DNA of 64,000 nucleotides from Aggregatilinea lenta (GTDB lineage Bacteria; Chloroflexota; Anaerolineae; Aggregatilineales; Aggregatilineaceae): contig NZ_BFCB01000003.1 in assembly GCF_003569045.1 (NCBI RefSeq), positions 2,666,001 to 2,730,000 on the forward strand, in the 5' to 3' direction. A model generated the notes under the pieces. It made no database searches and had not been told where the DNA came from. It saw nothing but the letters and a program-made list of their open reading frames with translations. Made by a program: the position numbers and the translations under genes. Below, one piece after another: positions 40,805 through 46,652 of the stretch (position 1 is the stretch's first letter; each line of letters starts with the position of its first letter).

Positions 40805-41581
40805 ATGTTTCAGCACAGCTCTCGTGGAACAGCCGTCTGGCTGATAATCGTCGGTCTTGCGCTGGCGCTCACACTCATCGCCGGGGAAATCCCCGCTGCT
40901 GCGGCTGCGCTGCTGCTGGCTGCCTACCTGGCGCTGGCGTACGTGGTGACGCGCCGCGTGGAGGTTGGCTCGATTATCGAGTCGCTGCCCCGTCCACCCG
41001 CACGCCAGGCCCAGGCGACCGAGGTCGCCCGAGAGGCCAGCGGACGTGCGAGTAACCATCCCCGCTTTGACCCGCTGGTGCACCTGCTGGACATCGGCCT
41101 GATCGTGGACGAACAGCGGCCCGATGGCCTATCGCTGCGGCGCGGGCGCTTCATTTCGCTGGACGACGACGGCGTCCGCCCGTTCGCGATCGTGGACGTG
41201 CCGGAAGGCATCGGGGATCGCATGGCGCGCATCCGGTTTGAGATCCGCGACGAAGACGGCAAGCCGCGCTATGTCTACGAGGACGACAAGTGGCTGCGCG
41301 CGGGCGAAAACGCCCTGCTGCCGGATTACCGGCTTCCGATCAGTGGCAACGAGTCGCAGCTGGGAGCGGGAATGTGGATCATGCGCGTCCAGGTGGACGG
41401 CGGCATGCTGGGCATTCACAACTTCAACCTGTCCCCCTCGCTGAGTGAGCGCCGCCGCCAGTTATCACCAGATGGCGAGCTGCGCGAGCGGGTATGGCGC
41501 AGCGAGGAAGAAGACGTCGCGCTGCCGCTGAGCCTTGAGGAACTGCTGCGGCAGCAGAGTCAGCAGCACCGGGCGAGGTAA
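40805..41581 (+). CDS. Membrane-anchored beta-domain protein 1 of the E1-E2-JAB locus
   Basis: 258 residues. Two close hydrophobic segments (about 9-48) anchor it, followed by a mainly beta soluble domain (about 85-215). Its core pattern LLDIGLIV, RIRFEIRDEDGKPRY, WLRAGENALLPDYRLPI and WIMRVQVDGGMLGIHNF resembles an Ig-like sandwich. The C-terminus (about 216-258) is charged and helical. The next two genes encode proteins of the same plan. The ATG at 40805 follows AAGGGTGG; a GTG three codons upstream is an alternative. First gene of an eight-gene operon; TATGAT at 40775 may be its -10. No known family recognised. Confidence 0.72.
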   Translation: MFQHSSRGTAVWLIIVGLALALTLIAGEIPAAAAALLLAAYLALAYVVTRRVEVGSIIESLPRPPARQAQATEVAREASGRASNHPRFDPLVHLLDIGLIVDEQRPDGLSLRRGRFISLDDDGVRPFAIVDVPEGIGDRMARIRFEIRDEDGKPRYVYEDDKWLRAGENALLPDYRLPISGNESQLGAGMWIMRVQVDGGMLGIHNFNLSPSLSERRRQLSPDGELRERVWRSEEEDVALPLSLEELLRQQSQQHRAR

Positions 41582-41591
41582 CCGTACTCAT

Positions 41592-42269
41592 ATGAACGGC
41601 GTGATCTTTATCCTCCTCATTTTGGCTGTCCTGGCAGTTCTGTTTCTCGTGACCTCTTCGGGCCAGACCCAACCGGCGTCGCGCCAGGGGTACAGCCAGA
41701 AACGCAAGATGCAGGCAATTGATCAGGACCTGCACCCGGTGGCGCGGGAAGCGATGCGTCGCGCGGGTTACGGCGCGGACGCGTCGTACGTGCAGGTGGC
41801 TGACATCGGGCTGCTGGCCTATCGCAACACGTCCGACGGCAAAGTGATCCGTGCAGGCGACGTGCTGGTGGACTCGCGCTATCTGCGGCCCTTTGCCGAG
41901 CTGTGGCTGCCCTACGCGGCGGCGGGCAGCGTCCGGTTTGAGATTGCGGACGGGGGCGGGCGGCTGCGGTATGCCGACGAGGCGCAGTATGAGCTTCAGC
42001 GCGGGGTCAATACCGTGCTGCCGGGCACGTGGCTGCCGCTGGAAGGAAAGGCGATTGAGCCGGGCGAAGACTGGACGCTGCGACTGATGGCGAGCGGTAC
42101 GCTGCTGGCCTCGCACCTCTTTGGCTGGGAACCGGTCGGCGGCGGCACGATTCAGCAGTACGTGGCCGGGGACGGTGAACTCAGCCCGGCGCTGCGAGAA
42201 GCGGTGCTGCGTGCCGAGTCGCGCAGTGCGGTGAGCCTTTCGGAGTTGCTGTCGGATCAGGGCGAGTAA
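41592..42269 (+). CDS. Membrane-anchored beta-domain protein 2 of the E1-E2-JAB locus
   Basis: 225 residues. One N-terminal membrane helix (about 3-22), a short basic linker, and a beta domain (about 60-190) that shares order and motifs with protein 1: VADIGLLAYR, SVRFEIADGGGRLRY, LQRGVNTVLPGTWLPL and WTLRLMASGTLLASHLFGW. It begins 10 bp after the previous stop with GAGG about 13 bases upstream. The C-terminal helix ends SLSELLSDQGE, parallel to LSLEELLRQQ in protein 1. It does not end in a Gly-Gly tail. Confidence 0.72.
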   Translation: MNGVIFILLILAVLAVLFLVTSSGQTQPASRQGYSQKRKMQAIDQDLHPVAREAMRRAGYGADASYVQVADIGLLAYRNTSDGKVIRAGDVLVDSRYLRPFAELWLPYAAAGSVRFEIADGGGRLRYADEAQYELQRGVNTVLPGTWLPLEGKAIEPGEDWTLRLMASGTLLASHLFGWEPVGGGTIQQYVAGDGELSPALREAVLRAESRSAVSLSELLSDQGE

Positions 42270-42312
42270 TGGAAGCGCATTGAAGTAGACGTAGCGGAAT
42301 GGCTGATCTGGT

Positions 42313-43092
42313 ATGACTTACAAGGAAAAGCGGAAGCGCAGCCCCTGGCAGCCGCCTCAGTTGGCGCGACCGTCCGGTGCGGCGATCGTCGGCAGCTCGG
42401 CTATTGGGGCGCTGGCGCTGTACGCTCTCCTGTCCGGCGACGTCTGGGTCGCGGCGGGATGGGGCATGGCCGCCATGCTGATTTTCCTCGTGGTGCTGGC
42501 GGTGTACTTCTGGGGATCGCTGGTGTTTGGCGGCACGCTGAGCGCGTTCGGCAGCAGCAGGCCCGTGCCGTGGACGTTCGGCGCAGTCGAGGATGCCACG
42601 CACGACATCGATCCGGGCATCGAAATTCTGTCCGCCGGGGTGCTGGCCTACTACGATGATGTGGCGGAAGCCGTGCCGTGTTTCCGTACGGTTCCGGCGC
42701 GTGGACTGCGTGCGGTGCGACCCTTCCTTGTCGCGCGTAGCGGCATGGACGAGATGCGCGACTTTGAATTTGAGCTGGTGGATGCGCACGATCGCGCCCG
42801 GTTCCGGCGGCGGATCGAGCAGGCGCTGAGCAGCACGCCGGGCCTCGTTATCCTGCCCCTGCCGCTGGCGCTGGCGTCTGCGAGACCGGAGCTGGTATGG
42901 GGCTGGCGCGTGCGATCCGGGATCACGGTGCTGGCGACGTTTCACATCGACCTGACTGACGAAACGCTGCGACACAGTGGGATGTTGGAAGACGCAGGTG
43001 GCGATCACGGTCCGTTGGGTGTCTTGCTGCACGAGCTGGCCACACGTGAACCGGCTGACCTGCCCGTTGAAAGGCTTCAGGAGGGGGTATGA
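42313..43092 (+). CDS. Membrane-anchored beta-domain protein 3 of the E1-E2-JAB locus
   Basis: 259 residues. A basic N-terminus (MTYKEKRKRSPW), two membrane helices (about 24-75), then a beta domain (about 95-220) with the same order as proteins 1 and 2 though more diverged: IEILSAGVLAYYDD, DFEFELVDAHDRARF, EQALSSTPGLVILPLPL and WGWRVRSGITVLATFHIDL. The stop overlaps the ATG of the E2-like gene (ATGA), which ties the membrane proteins to the conjugation genes. Confidence 0.72.
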   Translation: MTYKEKRKRSPWQPPQLARPSGAAIVGSSAIGALALYALLSGDVWVAAGWGMAAMLIFLVVLAVYFWGSLVFGGTLSAFGSSRPVPWTFGAVEDATHDIDPGIEILSAGVLAYYDDVAEAVPCFRTVPARGLRAVRPFLVARSGMDEMRDFEFELVDAHDRARFRRRIEQALSSTPGLVILPLPLALASARPELVWGWRVRSGITVLATFHIDLTDETLRHSGMLEDAGGDHGPLGVLLHELATREPADLPVERLQEGV

Positions 43093-43568
43093 GCAGAGGA
43101 AGCTGGTGGGGAAGCCCCGATCAGGTTTCGACCCGGCTGCGGCTGGAGGTCGAGCTGATGCGGGCGACTTTCGCCGATACGTTTCGCCTGATTGTGCCAA
43201 AGCGCGAGCTGCTGTACTGGCAGGGCGATGTCGAGATTAATATGCACGGCATCCCGCAGCGGCTGCATACGCTGAAGATCATCTATCCGGTGGAGTATCC
43301 AAACCGCCCGGCAGAGGCGTATGTGATCAAGCCGACGGTTTACAGCGAAAAGCATCAGTTTGAAGACGGGCAGTTGTGCCTGTTTAACCCGAAGGACGGG
43401 GTGACGTACGGCTGGAATCCGAGCACCTCGACTGCCGTCACAGTGGCGGGCTGGGCGGTCGAGTGGCTGTACTCGTACTACACCTGGCGGTCCACGGGGG
43501 TGTGGCCGGGCGTCGAGGAGCAAATGCCGCCCAGCAAGGCGCCGCGCAATAAAAGGAGACGGTCGTGA
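43089..43568 (+). CDS. E2 (ubiquitin-conjugating enzyme)-like protein
   Basis: 159 residues with a UBC fold. After an N-terminal helix (TRLRLEVELMRATF) come strands with YWQGDVEINMHG, the hallmark IIYPVEYPNRPAEAYVI (YPxxYPxxP), and the active-site stretch KHQFEDGQLCLFNPKDG with His89 and Cys97. A C-terminal WAVEWLYSYYTWRSTGVWPG matches the W-rich end common in bacterial E2s. It should take a modifier from the E1-like protein onto Cys97 as a thioester. The ATG overlaps the previous stop and the stop overlaps the next start (GTGA). A basic tail (PRNKRRRS) may contact the membrane. Confidence 0.85.
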   Translation: MSRGSWWGSPDQVSTRLRLEVELMRATFADTFRLIVPKRELLYWQGDVEINMHGIPQRLHTLKIIYPVEYPNRPAEAYVIKPTVYSEKHQFEDGQLCLFNPKDGVTYGWNPSTSTAVTVAGWAVEWLYSYYTWRSTGVWPGVEEQMPPSKAPRNKRRRS

Positions 43569-44770
43569 GCGAGGTCAAACAGGAGAATCCGAGGTACGAC
43601 ATGCCACGCGTCGTCGTGGCGCAGCGCGTGATCGACAAGATCACACGGGGCGCGCTGCTGTACCCTGAGCCGGAAACCGGCGAGGCGATGATCGGGTTGG
43701 TCGTGTCGCGTCCGGGGCAGTCGGAGCCGGAGATTTACATCCTCGACACGATCAGTCCCGGCGAACGTGCCGTGCGCGAGTGGGGCATGTTCGAGCAGGG
43801 CGACGATTGGCAGGGCGACGTCTTCCACTGGCTGTACATCAACTGGGAGACCTACCGCGCCCAGCGGCGCGGCTCCTATGGGAATGCGGTCGCGGCCAAG
43901 TGGGACGTGCCACTGGCGCACGTGGGCGACTGGCACAAACAGCCGGACGACATGATCGAGCCGTCCGGCGGCGACCTGATGCAGGCGCGGCGCATGATCA
44001 ACGACGCGGAAACGCCGATTGCGCAGGTCGTCGCTCCGATCGTGACGATGTACTCGCTGAAGCACGCGAAGCCAGTCGAGGTTGCCGTCGAATCCGCTGC
44101 CGAATCCGGAGCGTCGAGTGAGGCCGCGTCGGAACCAGATGGTGACGACCCAGCGCCGGAAACAGAAGTGGCTGAAGCGTCCACGCCCGCGCCGGAGCGG
44201 GTTCAGGTGACCGAATACCTGATGGGCGTGCAGCCGCCGCCCCCTGCGCCGGGCATGGTGACCGTCGAAAGGCCGGGCGAAGGCTGGCTGATCCGCATCG
44301 ACTTTTGGTACACCAGCCGCCGCCTCAAGCGGTTCGCGCGGCTCGTGCCGGAAGTGTGGCCGGATGACCGTTTGCCGGGACTGCCACCGCTGGCGTGGCA
44401 TCTGGCGCATCCGCGCCGCTTCGACCAGGAGTACAGCCTGCTGGCGCAGGCGGGTTATACCGTGGACGTGGTGCGCTGGGACGCGGACGGCAAACCGCCA
44501 TACGAGATTTGTTTCTCGGTGTACAAGCCTGGCAATCGCTACGCGATCCTGCTGGTGACGTCCATCGATTACCCGACTTCGATGCCTGCCGCGCGCGTCG
44601 CGCCGATGGTCACGGCAACCGAAGACGAAGATCTGTTCGAGAAGCTGTATGATGCGTCGTCGCCGCTGCTGATCACGCAAATGCCGGAGTGGCCGTGGGA
44701 TTCCAAGCGGACGCTGCTGGAGCTGATGTGGCACTTCGAAAAGACGCTGAAAGAGGATAGTGTGGTATGA
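43565..44770 (+). CDS. JAB/JAMM-like protein fused to a second UBC/RWD-like domain
   Basis: 401 residues. Domain 1 (about 10-165) is JAB-like: EPETGEAMIGLVVS supplies the Glu (E37), and GDWHKQPDDMIEPSGGD supplies His124, Ser134 and Asp137, but the second His of the JAMM motif (HxH) is Gln126. A Pro/Ala/Glu linker (about 168-230) follows. Domain 2 (about 235-400) looks like an E2/RWD fold: YEICFSVYKPG, then AILLVTSIDYPTSMPAARV with the YPxxxP turn, and a final helical WDSKRTLLELMWHFEK; no catalytic Cys is present. It may remove or process the modifier, or bind it without cleavage. GTG start overlaps the E2 stop. Confidence 0.78.
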   Translation: MSEVKQENPRYDMPRVVVAQRVIDKITRGALLYPEPETGEAMIGLVVSRPGQSEPEIYILDTISPGERAVREWGMFEQGDDWQGDVFHWLYINWETYRAQRRGSYGNAVAAKWDVPLAHVGDWHKQPDDMIEPSGGDLMQARRMINDAETPIAQVVAPIVTMYSLKHAKPVEVAVESAAESGASSEAASEPDGDDPAPETEVAEASTPAPERVQVTEYLMGVQPPPPAPGMVTVERPGEGWLIRIDFWYTSRRLKRFARLVPEVWPDDRLPGLPPLAWHLAHPRRFDQEYSLLAQAGYTVDVVRWDADGKPPYEICFSVYKPGNRYAILLVTSIDYPTSMPAARVAPMVTATEDEDLFEKLYDASSPLLITQMPEWPWDSKRTLLELMWHFEKTLKEDSVV

Positions 44771-45663
44771 CGTGGGATCGGGTGGAACGGCTGCTGGGCG
44801 AGGACGTGCTCGGCTTCTTGCGCACGCAGACGGTGGGCATTATCGGCCTGGGATCGGGCGGCAGCTTTGCGGCGGTCAGTCTGGCGATGAGCGGCGTGGG
44901 GCGCTTCATCCTGGTTGACGACGACGCGCTGGAAGCGACCAACATCGTGCGGCATGCAGCGGACCGGCGCTACCTGGGCCAGACCAAAGTGGAGGCTGTG
45001 GCGGACCTGATCCGCCAGCGTAACCCGTCTGCCGAGGTGAAGGTTGTCGTGGGGCGCATCGAGGCTCACGCCGACCTGTTTGACGAGATGGATCTGGTGA
45101 TCTCCGGCGTAGACGGCGAAGGTCCCAAGTACCTGATCAATCAGGCATGCCTGGACCGTGGACGCACCGCCGTATACGCAGGCGTGTACGAGCGCGGTGA
45201 GGGCGGTGACGTGTGCGTCATTGTGCCGGGGCAGGGGCCGTGCTACGCCTGCTGGGCCGAGCATCTGCGCGAAGGGCTGGCCGATCCCGGCGCGGAGCCT
45301 GAGCTGGATTACGGCATGATCGGGCCGGAAGGCACGCTGTCCGCCGAGCCGGGGCTGTGGCTGCACGTGGTCCGCATCGCGTCGTCGCAGGCCGATATGG
45401 CATTAAACGAACTGGTGCAAGGCTTTGACGTGCACCGCGAGATGCCTGGCAACACGGTCGTGCTGGCGAATACGTGGCTGGAAATCTATGAGGGCCGGAC
45501 GACGCTCCCGTACGGCGCAGAGTGGCTGACCATTCCGCGCAATCCGGACTGTCTGGTGTGCGGCTCGATGTACCGGGAGCAGGACAGCGCCCAGGTCTCG
45601 CTGGACGATCTGATCAACCTGGGTCAGGTGTCGTACGAACAGGATGAAAGCGAAAGCAGCTAG
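44767..45663 (+). CDS. E1/ThiF/MoeB-like activating enzyme
   Basis: 298 residues. The adenylation domain shows the P-loop-like GLGSGGS (27-33), ILVDDDALEATNIVRH (48-63) with Asp, Asn and Arg of the ATP site, GQTKVEAV (71-78) and LVISGVDG (110-117). Two CxxC pairs (C159/C162 in GPCYACW, C262/C265 in PDCLVCGS) form the usual structural zinc site. It would adenylate the C-terminus of a modifier and pass it on. The region between about 170 and 250 is unlike MoeB and no transfer Cys is evident, so transfer to the E2 Cys may be direct. The ATG overlaps the JAB stop. Confidence 0.87.
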   Translation: MTWDRVERLLGEDVLGFLRTQTVGIIGLGSGGSFAAVSLAMSGVGRFILVDDDALEATNIVRHAADRRYLGQTKVEAVADLIRQRNPSAEVKVVVGRIEAHADLFDEMDLVISGVDGEGPKYLINQACLDRGRTAVYAGVYERGEGGDVCVIVPGQGPCYACWAEHLREGLADPGAEPELDYGMIGPEGTLSAEPGLWLHVVRIASSQADMALNELVQGFDVHREMPGNTVVLANTWLEIYEGRTTLPYGAEWLTIPRNPDCLVCGSMYREQDSAQVSLDDLINLGQVSYEQDESESS

Positions 45664-45693: not shown

Positions 45694-45990
45694 ATGAGTG
45701 AAGACAGAATTCCGCCTGTTGAAGATGAAATTCCAGGGACGCCAACCGGGGAGCCAGCCGCGCCGCTGCCGGATGACGGCGTGCAAGGCCCGTCGACCGA
45801 AGATCTGGGTCCGCGCCTGGAGCGGTTGGGTGGGGAACCCGCGCCGGACATCACGCCGGAGGAGTTCGCCCGGCTGCAGGAAGCGGGACAGATCCACATC
45901 GACCCGCGCGGGCGGGTCCGCACGACACGCCGCGACGAAACCGACGCCGGTATCTCGCTGCGTAAGCGCCGCGCCTGGTATGCCGCATGA
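45694..45990 (+). CDS. Small charged protein of the E1-E2-JAB locus
   Basis: 98 residues. The first half is acidic and Pro-rich, the middle has a short helix (ITPEEFARLQEAGQ), and the tail is basic and ends LRKRRAWYAA. No beta-grasp fold or terminal Gly-Gly is visible. It could be a substrate, an adaptor or an unusual modifier; all three are guesses from position. The ATG at 45694 follows AGAGGA at good spacing and the stop overlaps the Nudix ATG (ATGA). Confidence 0.7.
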   Translation: MSEDRIPPVEDEIPGTPTGEPAAPLPDDGVQGPSTEDLGPRLERLGGEPAPDITPEEFARLQEAGQIHIDPRGRVRTTRRDETDAGISLRKRRAWYAA

Positions 45991-46652
45991 TTGGCGCGCC
46001 AACGGTCGAGGCGATCCGTGCGGCGATGGCACTGCCTGACTTCGACGCGGTTGCGGCCCAGGAACTGATGGCGCCGCAGCCGCGTCCGCTGCGCCGGTCG
46101 CCGTCCACGCCGGGCCAGCCGCGTCTGGCGAGCACGCTGATCCTGCTGTATCCCGGTGAGGAGGGGCTGTCGCTGGTCTTGACCCGCCGTGCGGAACATC
46201 CGCACGATGTACATAGCGGCCAGATCAGCCTGCCAGGCGGATCGCAGGAACCGGGCGAGACGCCGCTGCAAACCGCCTTACGCGAGGCGAACGAAGAGGT
46301 CGGTTTTGCGGACGACGCGGAGATTCTCGGAACGCTGACGCCGATCTACATCCCGCCCAGCGACTTCCGCGTGGTGCCGGTGGTGGTATACGCGGCGGCG
46401 CATCCGGCCTGGACGATTGATCCGGTCGAGGTGGCGGCGGTGATCGAGTGCCCCGTCACGGACCTGCTGGATGACCGACTGAAGGTGGTCGAGGACTGGG
46501 ATCTGCGCGGCTACCGGATGCGCGTGCCGTGGTACAACATTCAGGGGAATCGGGTGTGGGGCGCGACGGCAATCATACTCAGCGAGCTGGAACAGCGCCT
46601 GCGCGCCGCGCTTGAGGTGCCGCATGCGGTCTCGCGGCAGGCCGGGGATTAG
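45987..46652 (+). CDS. Nudix hydrolase, CoA pyrophosphatase type
   Basis: 221 residues. The CoA-specific motif precedes the Nudix box: LTRRAEHPHDVHSGQISLPG, then GETPLQTALREANEEVGF with the REANEEVG catalytic core. PPSDFRVVPVVVY is typical of the NudL/YeaB group, which cuts CoA into 3',5'-ADP and phosphopantetheine. Four-base overlap with the preceding gene puts it in the operon; it might clear CoA-type or adenylylated by-products, or be a passenger. Confidence 0.92.
   Translation: MIGAPTVEAIRAAMALPDFDAVAAQELMAPQPRPLRRSPSTPGQPRLASTLILLYPGEEGLSLVLTRRAEHPHDVHSGQISLPGGSQEPGETPLQTALREANEEVGFADDAEILGTLTPIYIPPSDFRVVPVVVYAAAHPAWTIDPVEVAAVIECPVTDLLDDRLKVVEDWDLRGYRMRVPWYNIQGNRVWGATAIILSELEQRLRAALEVPHAVSRQAGD

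What the first reader, a model, noticed from the sequence alone, without database searches (positions are those of the whole stretch)
40805..43092. Three tandem membrane-anchored paralogues ahead of the E2 gene
All three proteins have one or two N-terminal membrane helices, then a beta domain with parallel landmarks: a DIGL- or AGVL-like strand, RFEI/FEFE strand followed by a charged turn (EDGKPRY, GGGRLRY, HDRARF), an LxxGxNxxLP-like strand, a W-x-[MLR]-R-V final strand and an HxF-type end. They look like ancient duplicates of one Ig-like fold. Three of them in front of an E1-E2-JAB set suggests a membrane ring or trimeric receptor that is the target or the platform of conjugation.
Basis: partly seen in the sequence, partly recalled or inferred. 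Interest (0 to 1): 0.62.

Follow-up and report, generated by a model that had tools for sequence, protein, structure and literature searches.

The report
Membrane partners of bacterial ubiquitin-like conjugation
Three neighbouring bacterial genes are ancient copies of one membrane-anchored protein that is nearly always found with a ubiquitin-like tagging machine and ends in the same short tail as that machine's first enzyme, which suggests that it brings the tagging enzymes to the cell membrane.

Summary
A (40805-41581), B (41592-42269) and C (42313-43092) encode membrane-anchored paralogues: profile comparison gives A-B 7e-28, A-C 1.8e-7, B-C 1.5e-8, against 0.039 or worse in 15 controls. The model of B's domain is a confident Ig-like sandwich, inferred to face the cytosol. 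The trio is not the unit: in the window's order, 110 of 137 positive genomes (154 searched) carry two copies; in 11 of 11 fetched unlinked loci these are one A-like and one B-like gene. C was seen in 5 loci. A/B occur in exactly the 20 class-sample genomes that have the order's own E2. New here: A and B end in a short motif, Phi-S-L-[DES]-[DE]-L, that also ends the operon's unrelated E1 (strict form in 23 of 34 E1s, 25 of 28 A/B proteins at the E2 locus, 15 of 22 at unlinked loci, 1 of 686 other proteins). Best reading: A/B are membrane adaptors that recruit E2, E3-like. No ubiquitin-like protein was found; a conserved small protein, S, is the candidate modifier. The motif's partner and the function are inferred.

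The parts
40805..41581 (+). Gene A: two N-terminal membrane helices, inferred cytosolic Ig-like domain, C-terminal SLEELL tail
   Evidence: translation; hhalign; tree; topology; tail
41060..41443 (+). beta domain of A (aa 86-213), homologous to B and C
   Evidence: hhalign alignment of C to A; fold by homology to the B model
41528..41548 (+). C-tail motif of A, LSLEELL (aa 242-248)
41592..42269 (+). Gene B: one N-terminal membrane helix, Ig-like domain, C-terminal SLSELL tail
   Evidence: translation; AlphaFold2; fold search
41790..42131 (+). Ig-like domain of B (aa 67-180); pLDDT means of 88-98 per 10-residue block from residue 61 to 180
   Evidence: best PDB matches are Ig-like domains of GH2 enzymes and others, Z 9-10
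42231..42251 (+). C-tail motif of B, VSLSELL (aa 214-220)
42313..43092 (+). Gene C: third, divergent paralogue; two membrane helices, beta domain, no SL[DE][DE]L tail
   Evidence: translation
42601..42972 (+). beta domain of C (about aa 97-220)
   Evidence: hhalign to B and A; not folded
43089..43568 (+). E2 (UBC-fold) with invariant Cys97 in DGQLCLFNPKDG; overlaps C by 4 nt
   Evidence: PADLOC E2 5e-16; UBE2L3 about 3e-5 by profile; 23 of 23 keep Cys97
43565..44770 (+). JAB-domain protein; second half weakly E2/UEV-like; JAMM His replaced by Gln (GDWHKQP)
44767..45663 (+). E1 (ThiF/UBA5-like); four invariant zinc-type cysteines, no other invariant cysteine
   Evidence: Pfam ThiF 3e-33; UBA5 2e-15; alignment
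45595..45612 (+). C-tail motif of E1, VSLDDL (aa 277-282), same motif as A and B
45694..45990 (+). S: 98-aa protein, disordered N-terminus, conserved tail ...GISLRKRRAWY plus 0-6 variable residues; candidate modifier or adaptor

Best explanation
A and B are a conserved pair of membrane-anchored adaptors for a ubiquitin-like conjugation pathway that is nearly universal in five of the eight families of one Anaerolineae order. Their N-terminal helices hold an Ig-like domain on the cytosolic face. Their flexible C-terminal tails carry the same short motif (Phi-S-L-[DES]-[DE]-L) as the C-terminal tail of the pathway's E1. I propose that this motif docks the E2 (less likely the JAB protein), as the C-terminal UFC1-binding sequence of UBA5 docks its E2, so that a loaded E2 passes from E1 to A/B and conjugation is confined to the membrane, with the Ig domains choosing or presenting the target. 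Shown by computation: the homology, the Ig-like model of B, the shared tail motif, co-occurrence of unlinked genes, the conserved E2 cysteine. Inferred: topology, partner of the motif, E3-like role, targets. What is transferred is unknown; S is the best candidate, because no ubiquitin-like gene was found and CBASS shows (recalled) that these enzymes can use the tail of a non-ubiquitin protein.
For: Homology of A, B, C. Ig-like model with pLDDT up to 98, Z 9-10 to Ig-like domains. The same 20 genomes of the 298-genome class sample have the order's E2 and A/B. Of 154 order genomes, A/B in 137, E1 in 134, S in 135, 13 lacking all three, although in family f2 A/B lie elsewhere on the genome. Tail motif, strict form: E1 23 of 34, A 15 of 15 and B 10 of 13 at the E2 locus, A 4 of 11 and B 11 of 11 at unlinked loci, other proteins 1 of 686; the looser form is 26/34, 15/15, 12/13, 10/11, 11/11 against 1/686. 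Positive-inside pattern. UBA5 binds UFC1 by a C-terminal short linear sequence (PMC8481289, abstract and passages).
Against: No binding test of the motif. C lacks it (0 of 5), and 11 of 34 E1s and 7 of 11 unlinked A proteins miss the strict form. A and B are themselves related, so the motif unites two unrelated families (E1 and A/B), not three. Co-occurrence of the five families against f6, f60 and f61 may be one evolutionary event. No ubiquitin-like modifier was found, so conjugation itself is unproven; most JABs lack a JAMM histidine and E1 lacks an invariant cysteine besides the four zinc-type ones. Topology comes from charge counts and a hydropathy window only, and the C-flank counts in A are near balanced in several rows.
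Confidence: 0.4

Rival explanations
1. A and B are the main substrates: membrane sensors whose cytosolic domains are modified by the E1-E2 set; the tail motif brings the enzymes to their own target.
For: Co-occurrence and adjacency; cytosolic placement; the tail motif would recruit enzymes equally well.
Against: No acceptor site was examined; the motif copies E1, which fits docking rather than being a target, though both can be true.
Confidence: 0.25
2. A and B anchor and control the JAB protein (or S), making a membrane-bound deconjugase or reader rather than an E2 platform.
For: JAB is in the same operon with a weakly E2/UEV-like second half; UEV domains bind short peptides (recalled); in outgroup locus L067 the JAB and a UEV-like protein themselves carry membrane helices (my reading of the sequence).
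Against: The JAMM histidine is Gln in 32 of 36 JABs; UEV likeness is weak (E 0.0011, probability 20).
Confidence: 0.15
3. It is an anti-phage defence operon of the Bil or type II CBASS kind with a membrane effector.
For: E2 and E1 match PADLOC defence profiles; four of five distant E2s of the class sit beside a nucleotidyltransferase-like gene, as in CBASS (my reading).
Against: One E1 copy in each of 134 of 154 genomes of the order and one E2 in 20 of 21; the E2+E1 tree follows family labels with the least possible number of changes; no CD-NTase, two-Ubl protein or known effector among the eight operon proteins.
Confidence: 0.12
4. Three-subunit membrane ring or trimeric receptor.
For: Three paralogues in this window and a few close relatives.
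Against: Two copies in 110 and one in 11 of 137 genomes; C in 5 loci only; domains inferred to be cytosolic.
Confidence: 0.04

Closest known systems
UFM1 pathway: UBA5 (E1), UFC1 (E2)
   Same: UBA5 was the best PDB match by single-sequence search (2e-15), and UBA5 binds its E2 through a short C-terminal sequence (PMC8481289, passages).
   Different: No UFM1-like protein found; no invariant cysteine beyond the four zinc-type ones; the E2 profile matches UBE2L3-type UBC domains. By profile search ThiF, MccB and MoeB score as well as UBA5. The UFM1 E3 is a different protein (recalled).
Bil (BilABCD) bacterial ISG15-like system
   Same: E1, E2 and JAB genes in one operon.
   Different: No two-domain ubiquitin-like gene; E2 lacks the CEHH motif described for BilB (PMC11354881, passages); the membrane Ig-like pair and S are extra.
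Type II CBASS E1-E2/JAB and type II-short E2
   Same: E2s of CBASS-like loci in other Anaerolineae align with the same LCL cysteine motif; precedent (recalled) for conjugation without a ubiquitin fold.
   Different: No CD-NTase in the operon; near-universal single copy in the order instead of patchy.
Prokaryotic E1-E2-JAB gene clusters of Iyer et al. 2006 (types 6a-6e)
   Same: Same enzyme kinds; inactive RWD/E2-like partner domains are described there (PMC1779556, passages).
   Different: The clusters are called highly mobile there; Chloroflexus appears only with a ThiS/MoaD-type cluster in the passages I saw, and I saw no A/B-type membrane pair in them.

Membership tests
Immunoglobulin-like beta-sandwich (fold) | two-sheet sandwich matching solved Ig-like domains | tested here: met
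   Model of B residues 67-180; Z 9-10, rmsd mostly 2.2-3.3 over about 100 residues, to GH2 Ig-like, Wzt and factor XIII domains. A and C not folded.
Ubiquitin-like (beta-grasp) modifier | beta-grasp fold with activatable C-terminal Gly | tested here: not met
   B's domain is Ig-like; the S model is low-confidence (pLDDT 66, pTM 0.30) with short helices and a hairpin, and its end is variable. For S this is weak evidence.
Bil system | ubiquitin-like BilA gene in the operon | tested here: not met
   None of eight operon proteins matches a ubiquitin-like family. PF00240 over its cut-off in 0 of 6 whole genomes; other Ubl families were not searched genome-wide.
Bil system | E2 CEHH motif | tested here: not met
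   After Cys97 the positions +6, +8, +13 of the window E2 are D103, V105, N110 against E, H, H in BilB.
Type II CBASS | CD-NTase encoded with E2/E1/JAB | tested here: not met
   No cyclase among the eight proteins; the one PADLOC 'cyclase' hit, of the E2, covers only positions 459-539 of a 542-position profile.
JAMM/JAB isopeptidase | HxHP...D metal site | tested here: not met
   HxQP in 32 of 36, HKHP in 3, HSHP in the outgroup L067; Glu, first His, Ser and Asp are conserved. Activity not testable here.
Canonical UBA5-type E1 | catalytic cysteine besides the zinc cysteines | tested here: not met
   Invariant cysteines in 23 E1s are C159, C162, C262, C265 only; the alignment to UBA5 itself ends before its active cysteine.
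E2 ubiquitin-conjugating enzyme | UBC fold with conserved active cysteine | tested here: met
   Profile hits UBE2L3 at about 3e-5; Cys97 invariant in 23 of 23.
E3 ligase | binds E2 and stimulates transfer to a target | not testable with these tools
   Only the shared tail motif points to it.

The most novel reading that the evidence does not exclude
A housekeeping, membrane-localised conjugation pathway of a bacterial order in which a pair of Ig-fold membrane proteins act as E3-like adaptors by copying the E2-docking tail of the E1, and the modifier is not a ubiquitin fold but the conserved tail of a small disordered protein (S).
Probability: 0.2. Interest if true: 0.85.

Novelty: new variant of a known kind. 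Interest (0 to 1): 0.6.

Why it matters
Bacterial E1-E2-JAB sets are known mainly as mobile defence systems. Here one is nearly universal in most families of an order, fits vertical descent, and has a dedicated membrane pair that shares a tail motif with the E1. If the motif docks the E2, it would be a bacterial counterpart of an E3 adaptor without a RING or HECT domain, and would make membrane-directed ubiquitin-like conjugation in bacteria testable with three short peptides and one E2.

Tried and rejected
Pfam, PADLOC and PDB sequence searches named no family for A, B, C or S. The neighbours of unlinked A/B pairs in family f2 are a KsgA-like gene, an isocitrate/isopropylmalate-dehydrogenase-like gene and similar (my reading of sequences) and did not help. 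S as a ubiquitin fold: not supported. S tail as a general tag: rejected, one further match in the window's genome and none besides S in six others; four weaker matches in other order genomes lie in an RHS-like protein, a GIY-YIG-like protein and two phage-type proteins, the last two looking like a helix-turn-helix stretch. S in viral contigs: 28 pattern stretches, none confirmed. UEV nature of the JAB second half: suggestive only. Weak A/B hits outside the order, 1 of 277 class genomes and 3 of 398 phylum genomes, cover only about the first 90 profile positions, mostly the membrane part, and were not counted as relatives. Literature: I did not find the defining Bil and Bub papers in the listings; what I say of Bub-like systems and type II CBASS is recalled. 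One search for Anaerolineae with ubiquitin terms listed nothing relevant in the 10 shown of 14,709, which is a weak search; I make no claim that the set is unpublished.

Limits: gene calls are longest-ORF approximations made in scripts; family labels f1-f61 are the tool's anonymous ones; many genomes are MAGs, so single absences mean little.

Full report
The observation. C overlaps E2, E2 overlaps JAB, JAB overlaps E1 and S overlaps NUDIX by four bases, so this looks like one operon.

Are they paralogues? I collected relatives from 17 named contigs found with E1 and from the other 24 of the 25 genomes with an E2 hit in the class sample. Iterated profiles started from A, from B and from C all converged on 31 proteins. 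A tree separates A (16 rows), B (13) and C (5), window included. With each clade aligned alone, hhalign gives A-B 7.1e-28, A-C 1.8e-7, B-C 1.5e-8; 15 controls give 0.039 to 0.71. For the fold, one model was made, of B: the domain at residues 67-180 is very confident and matches Ig-like domains of GH2 enzymes, Wzt and factor XIII at Z 9-10. A and C were not folded.

Topology. Simple hydropathy finds two helices in all 16 A and 5 C rows and one helix in 12 of 13 B rows. The loop between the two helices is short, with at most one K/R except two in L007; B has an excess of K/R over D/E after its helix in 12 of 13 rows, L055 having equal numbers. By the positive-inside rule the Ig domains face the cytosol. 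In A the flank after the second helix is close to balanced in several rows, so this rests mainly on the loop and the N-terminus. It is an inference.

Always together? No, as a trio. In the whole order held (154 genomes) the family is found in 137, with two copies in 110, three in 14, one in 11 and four in 2 (my tally of the table). In the large family f2 the genes are not near E2 in the loci read. There and in one f5 locus, in 11 of 11 loci fetched, they form a tandem pair of which one matches the A profile best and the other the B profile. So the A/B duplication is old and C is a divergent extra.

Yes, with the enzymes. In the class sample of 298 genomes, E2 was found in 20 of 21 genomes of the order and, as weak matches, in 5 of 277 others. 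A/B were found in exactly the same 20, and in the other 277 only one match limited to the membrane part. In the order, E1 is in 134 of 154 and S in 135 of 154. Thirteen genomes lack A/B, E1 and S together: all nine of f6, both of f60, the one of f61 and one incomplete f1 genome. Seven have A/B without E1 and four E1 without A/B; four of these eleven are over 90% complete (G344, G351, G359, G411), so assembly gaps may not explain all of them. The presence pattern may reflect one gain or loss; the stronger point is that unlinked genes are kept together throughout five families. Within the order the E2+E1 tree follows the family labels with the least possible number of changes (f2 alone is not resolved as one branch). 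This fits vertical inheritance and speaks against a mobile defence island.

The shared tail. Reading the C-termini showed that A ends in PLSLEELLRQQ, B in VSLSELLSDQ and E1 in VSLDDLxxLG or close forms. In the last 50 residues the strict motif [AVLIM]SL[DES][DE]L occurs in 23 of 34 distinct orthologous E1s, 15 of 15 A and 10 of 13 B proteins at the E2 locus, 4 of 11 A and 11 of 11 B proteins at unlinked loci, 0 of 5 C, and 1 of 686 other proteins from the same loci (the outgroup L067 and the unrelated E1 of L019 were left out of the E1 count, and identical rows were counted once). A looser form raises these to 26, 15, 12, 10 and 11, again against 1 of 686. E1 and A/B are not related, so the motif unites two independent families in the same position. 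The motif was noticed first and then counted, so the counts are descriptive; still, the background is 0.15%. The nearest precedent is UBA5, which holds its E2 by a short C-terminal sequence (PMC8481289, abstract and passages). I therefore propose that the motif docks E2 and that A/B take E2 from E1 to the membrane. The partner is not shown.

The enzymes. E2 has the UBC fold by profile (UBE2L3, about 3e-5) and an invariant Cys97 (23 of 23). E1 is ThiF/UBA5-like with four invariant zinc-type cysteines and no other invariant one, so it may pass the adenylate straight to E2, an inference. The JAB has HxQP in place of HxHP in 32 of 36, so its metal site is altered in most; L007, L050 and L063 keep HKHP. 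Its second half is weakly like E2 (E 0.0011, probability 20; reversed control 0.4).

The missing modifier. None of the operon proteins is ubiquitin-like, and ubiquitin (PF00240) reached its cut-off in 0 of 6 genomes. S is as widely kept as E1, with a disordered start and a nearly invariant end, GISLRKRRAWY plus 0 to 6 variable residues. Its model is poor and shows no beta-grasp. It is the best candidate for what is conjugated, by analogy with CBASS (recalled), but its last residues are not conserved, which tells against it unless they are trimmed. In three f2 genomes checked (G262, G393, G201) S lies about 11 kb from E1 or on another contig.

Verdict. Real, ancient, and wider than the window: a membrane pair belonging to an order-wide conjugation set. 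The trimer idea is not supported. The E2-recruiting adaptor is the best reading at about 0.4.

Noticed in passing
window 43565-44770; 36 JAB proteins in held loci: The JAMM motif reads HxQP in 32 of 36, HKHP in 3 (L007, L050, L063) and HSHP in outgroup L067: a conserved but altered metal site.
   Followed up: partly
window 45694-45990 (S): A 98-aa protein with a nearly invariant end (GISLRKRRAWY) is found in 135 of 154 genomes of the order and in 0 of 398 phylum genomes outside it.
   Followed up: partly
L114:3937-5073, L115:4434-5078, L113:4201-4920, L116:4108-4866: Weak matches to the S tail inside an RHS-like protein, a GIY-YIG-like protein and two phage-type proteins (E 5e-6 to 5e-4).
   Followed up: partly
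L064, L065, L066, L068: Distant E2s of the class sit directly beside a nucleotidyltransferase-like gene, as in type II-short CBASS (my reading of the sequence).
   Followed up: no
L067:4505-8029: An outgroup set in another Anaerolineae family: JAB with a C-terminal membrane helix, a membrane-anchored protein with a UEV-like stretch, E2 and E1: membrane tethering may be a recurring theme.
   Followed up: no
window 45987-46652: A NUDIX gene overlaps S by four bases and follows S in many loci, more regularly in close relatives of the window.
   Followed up: no
G270:C1:116663-117355: A third, distant A/B relative far from the operon in one f5 genome (E 1.8e-21).
   Followed up: no
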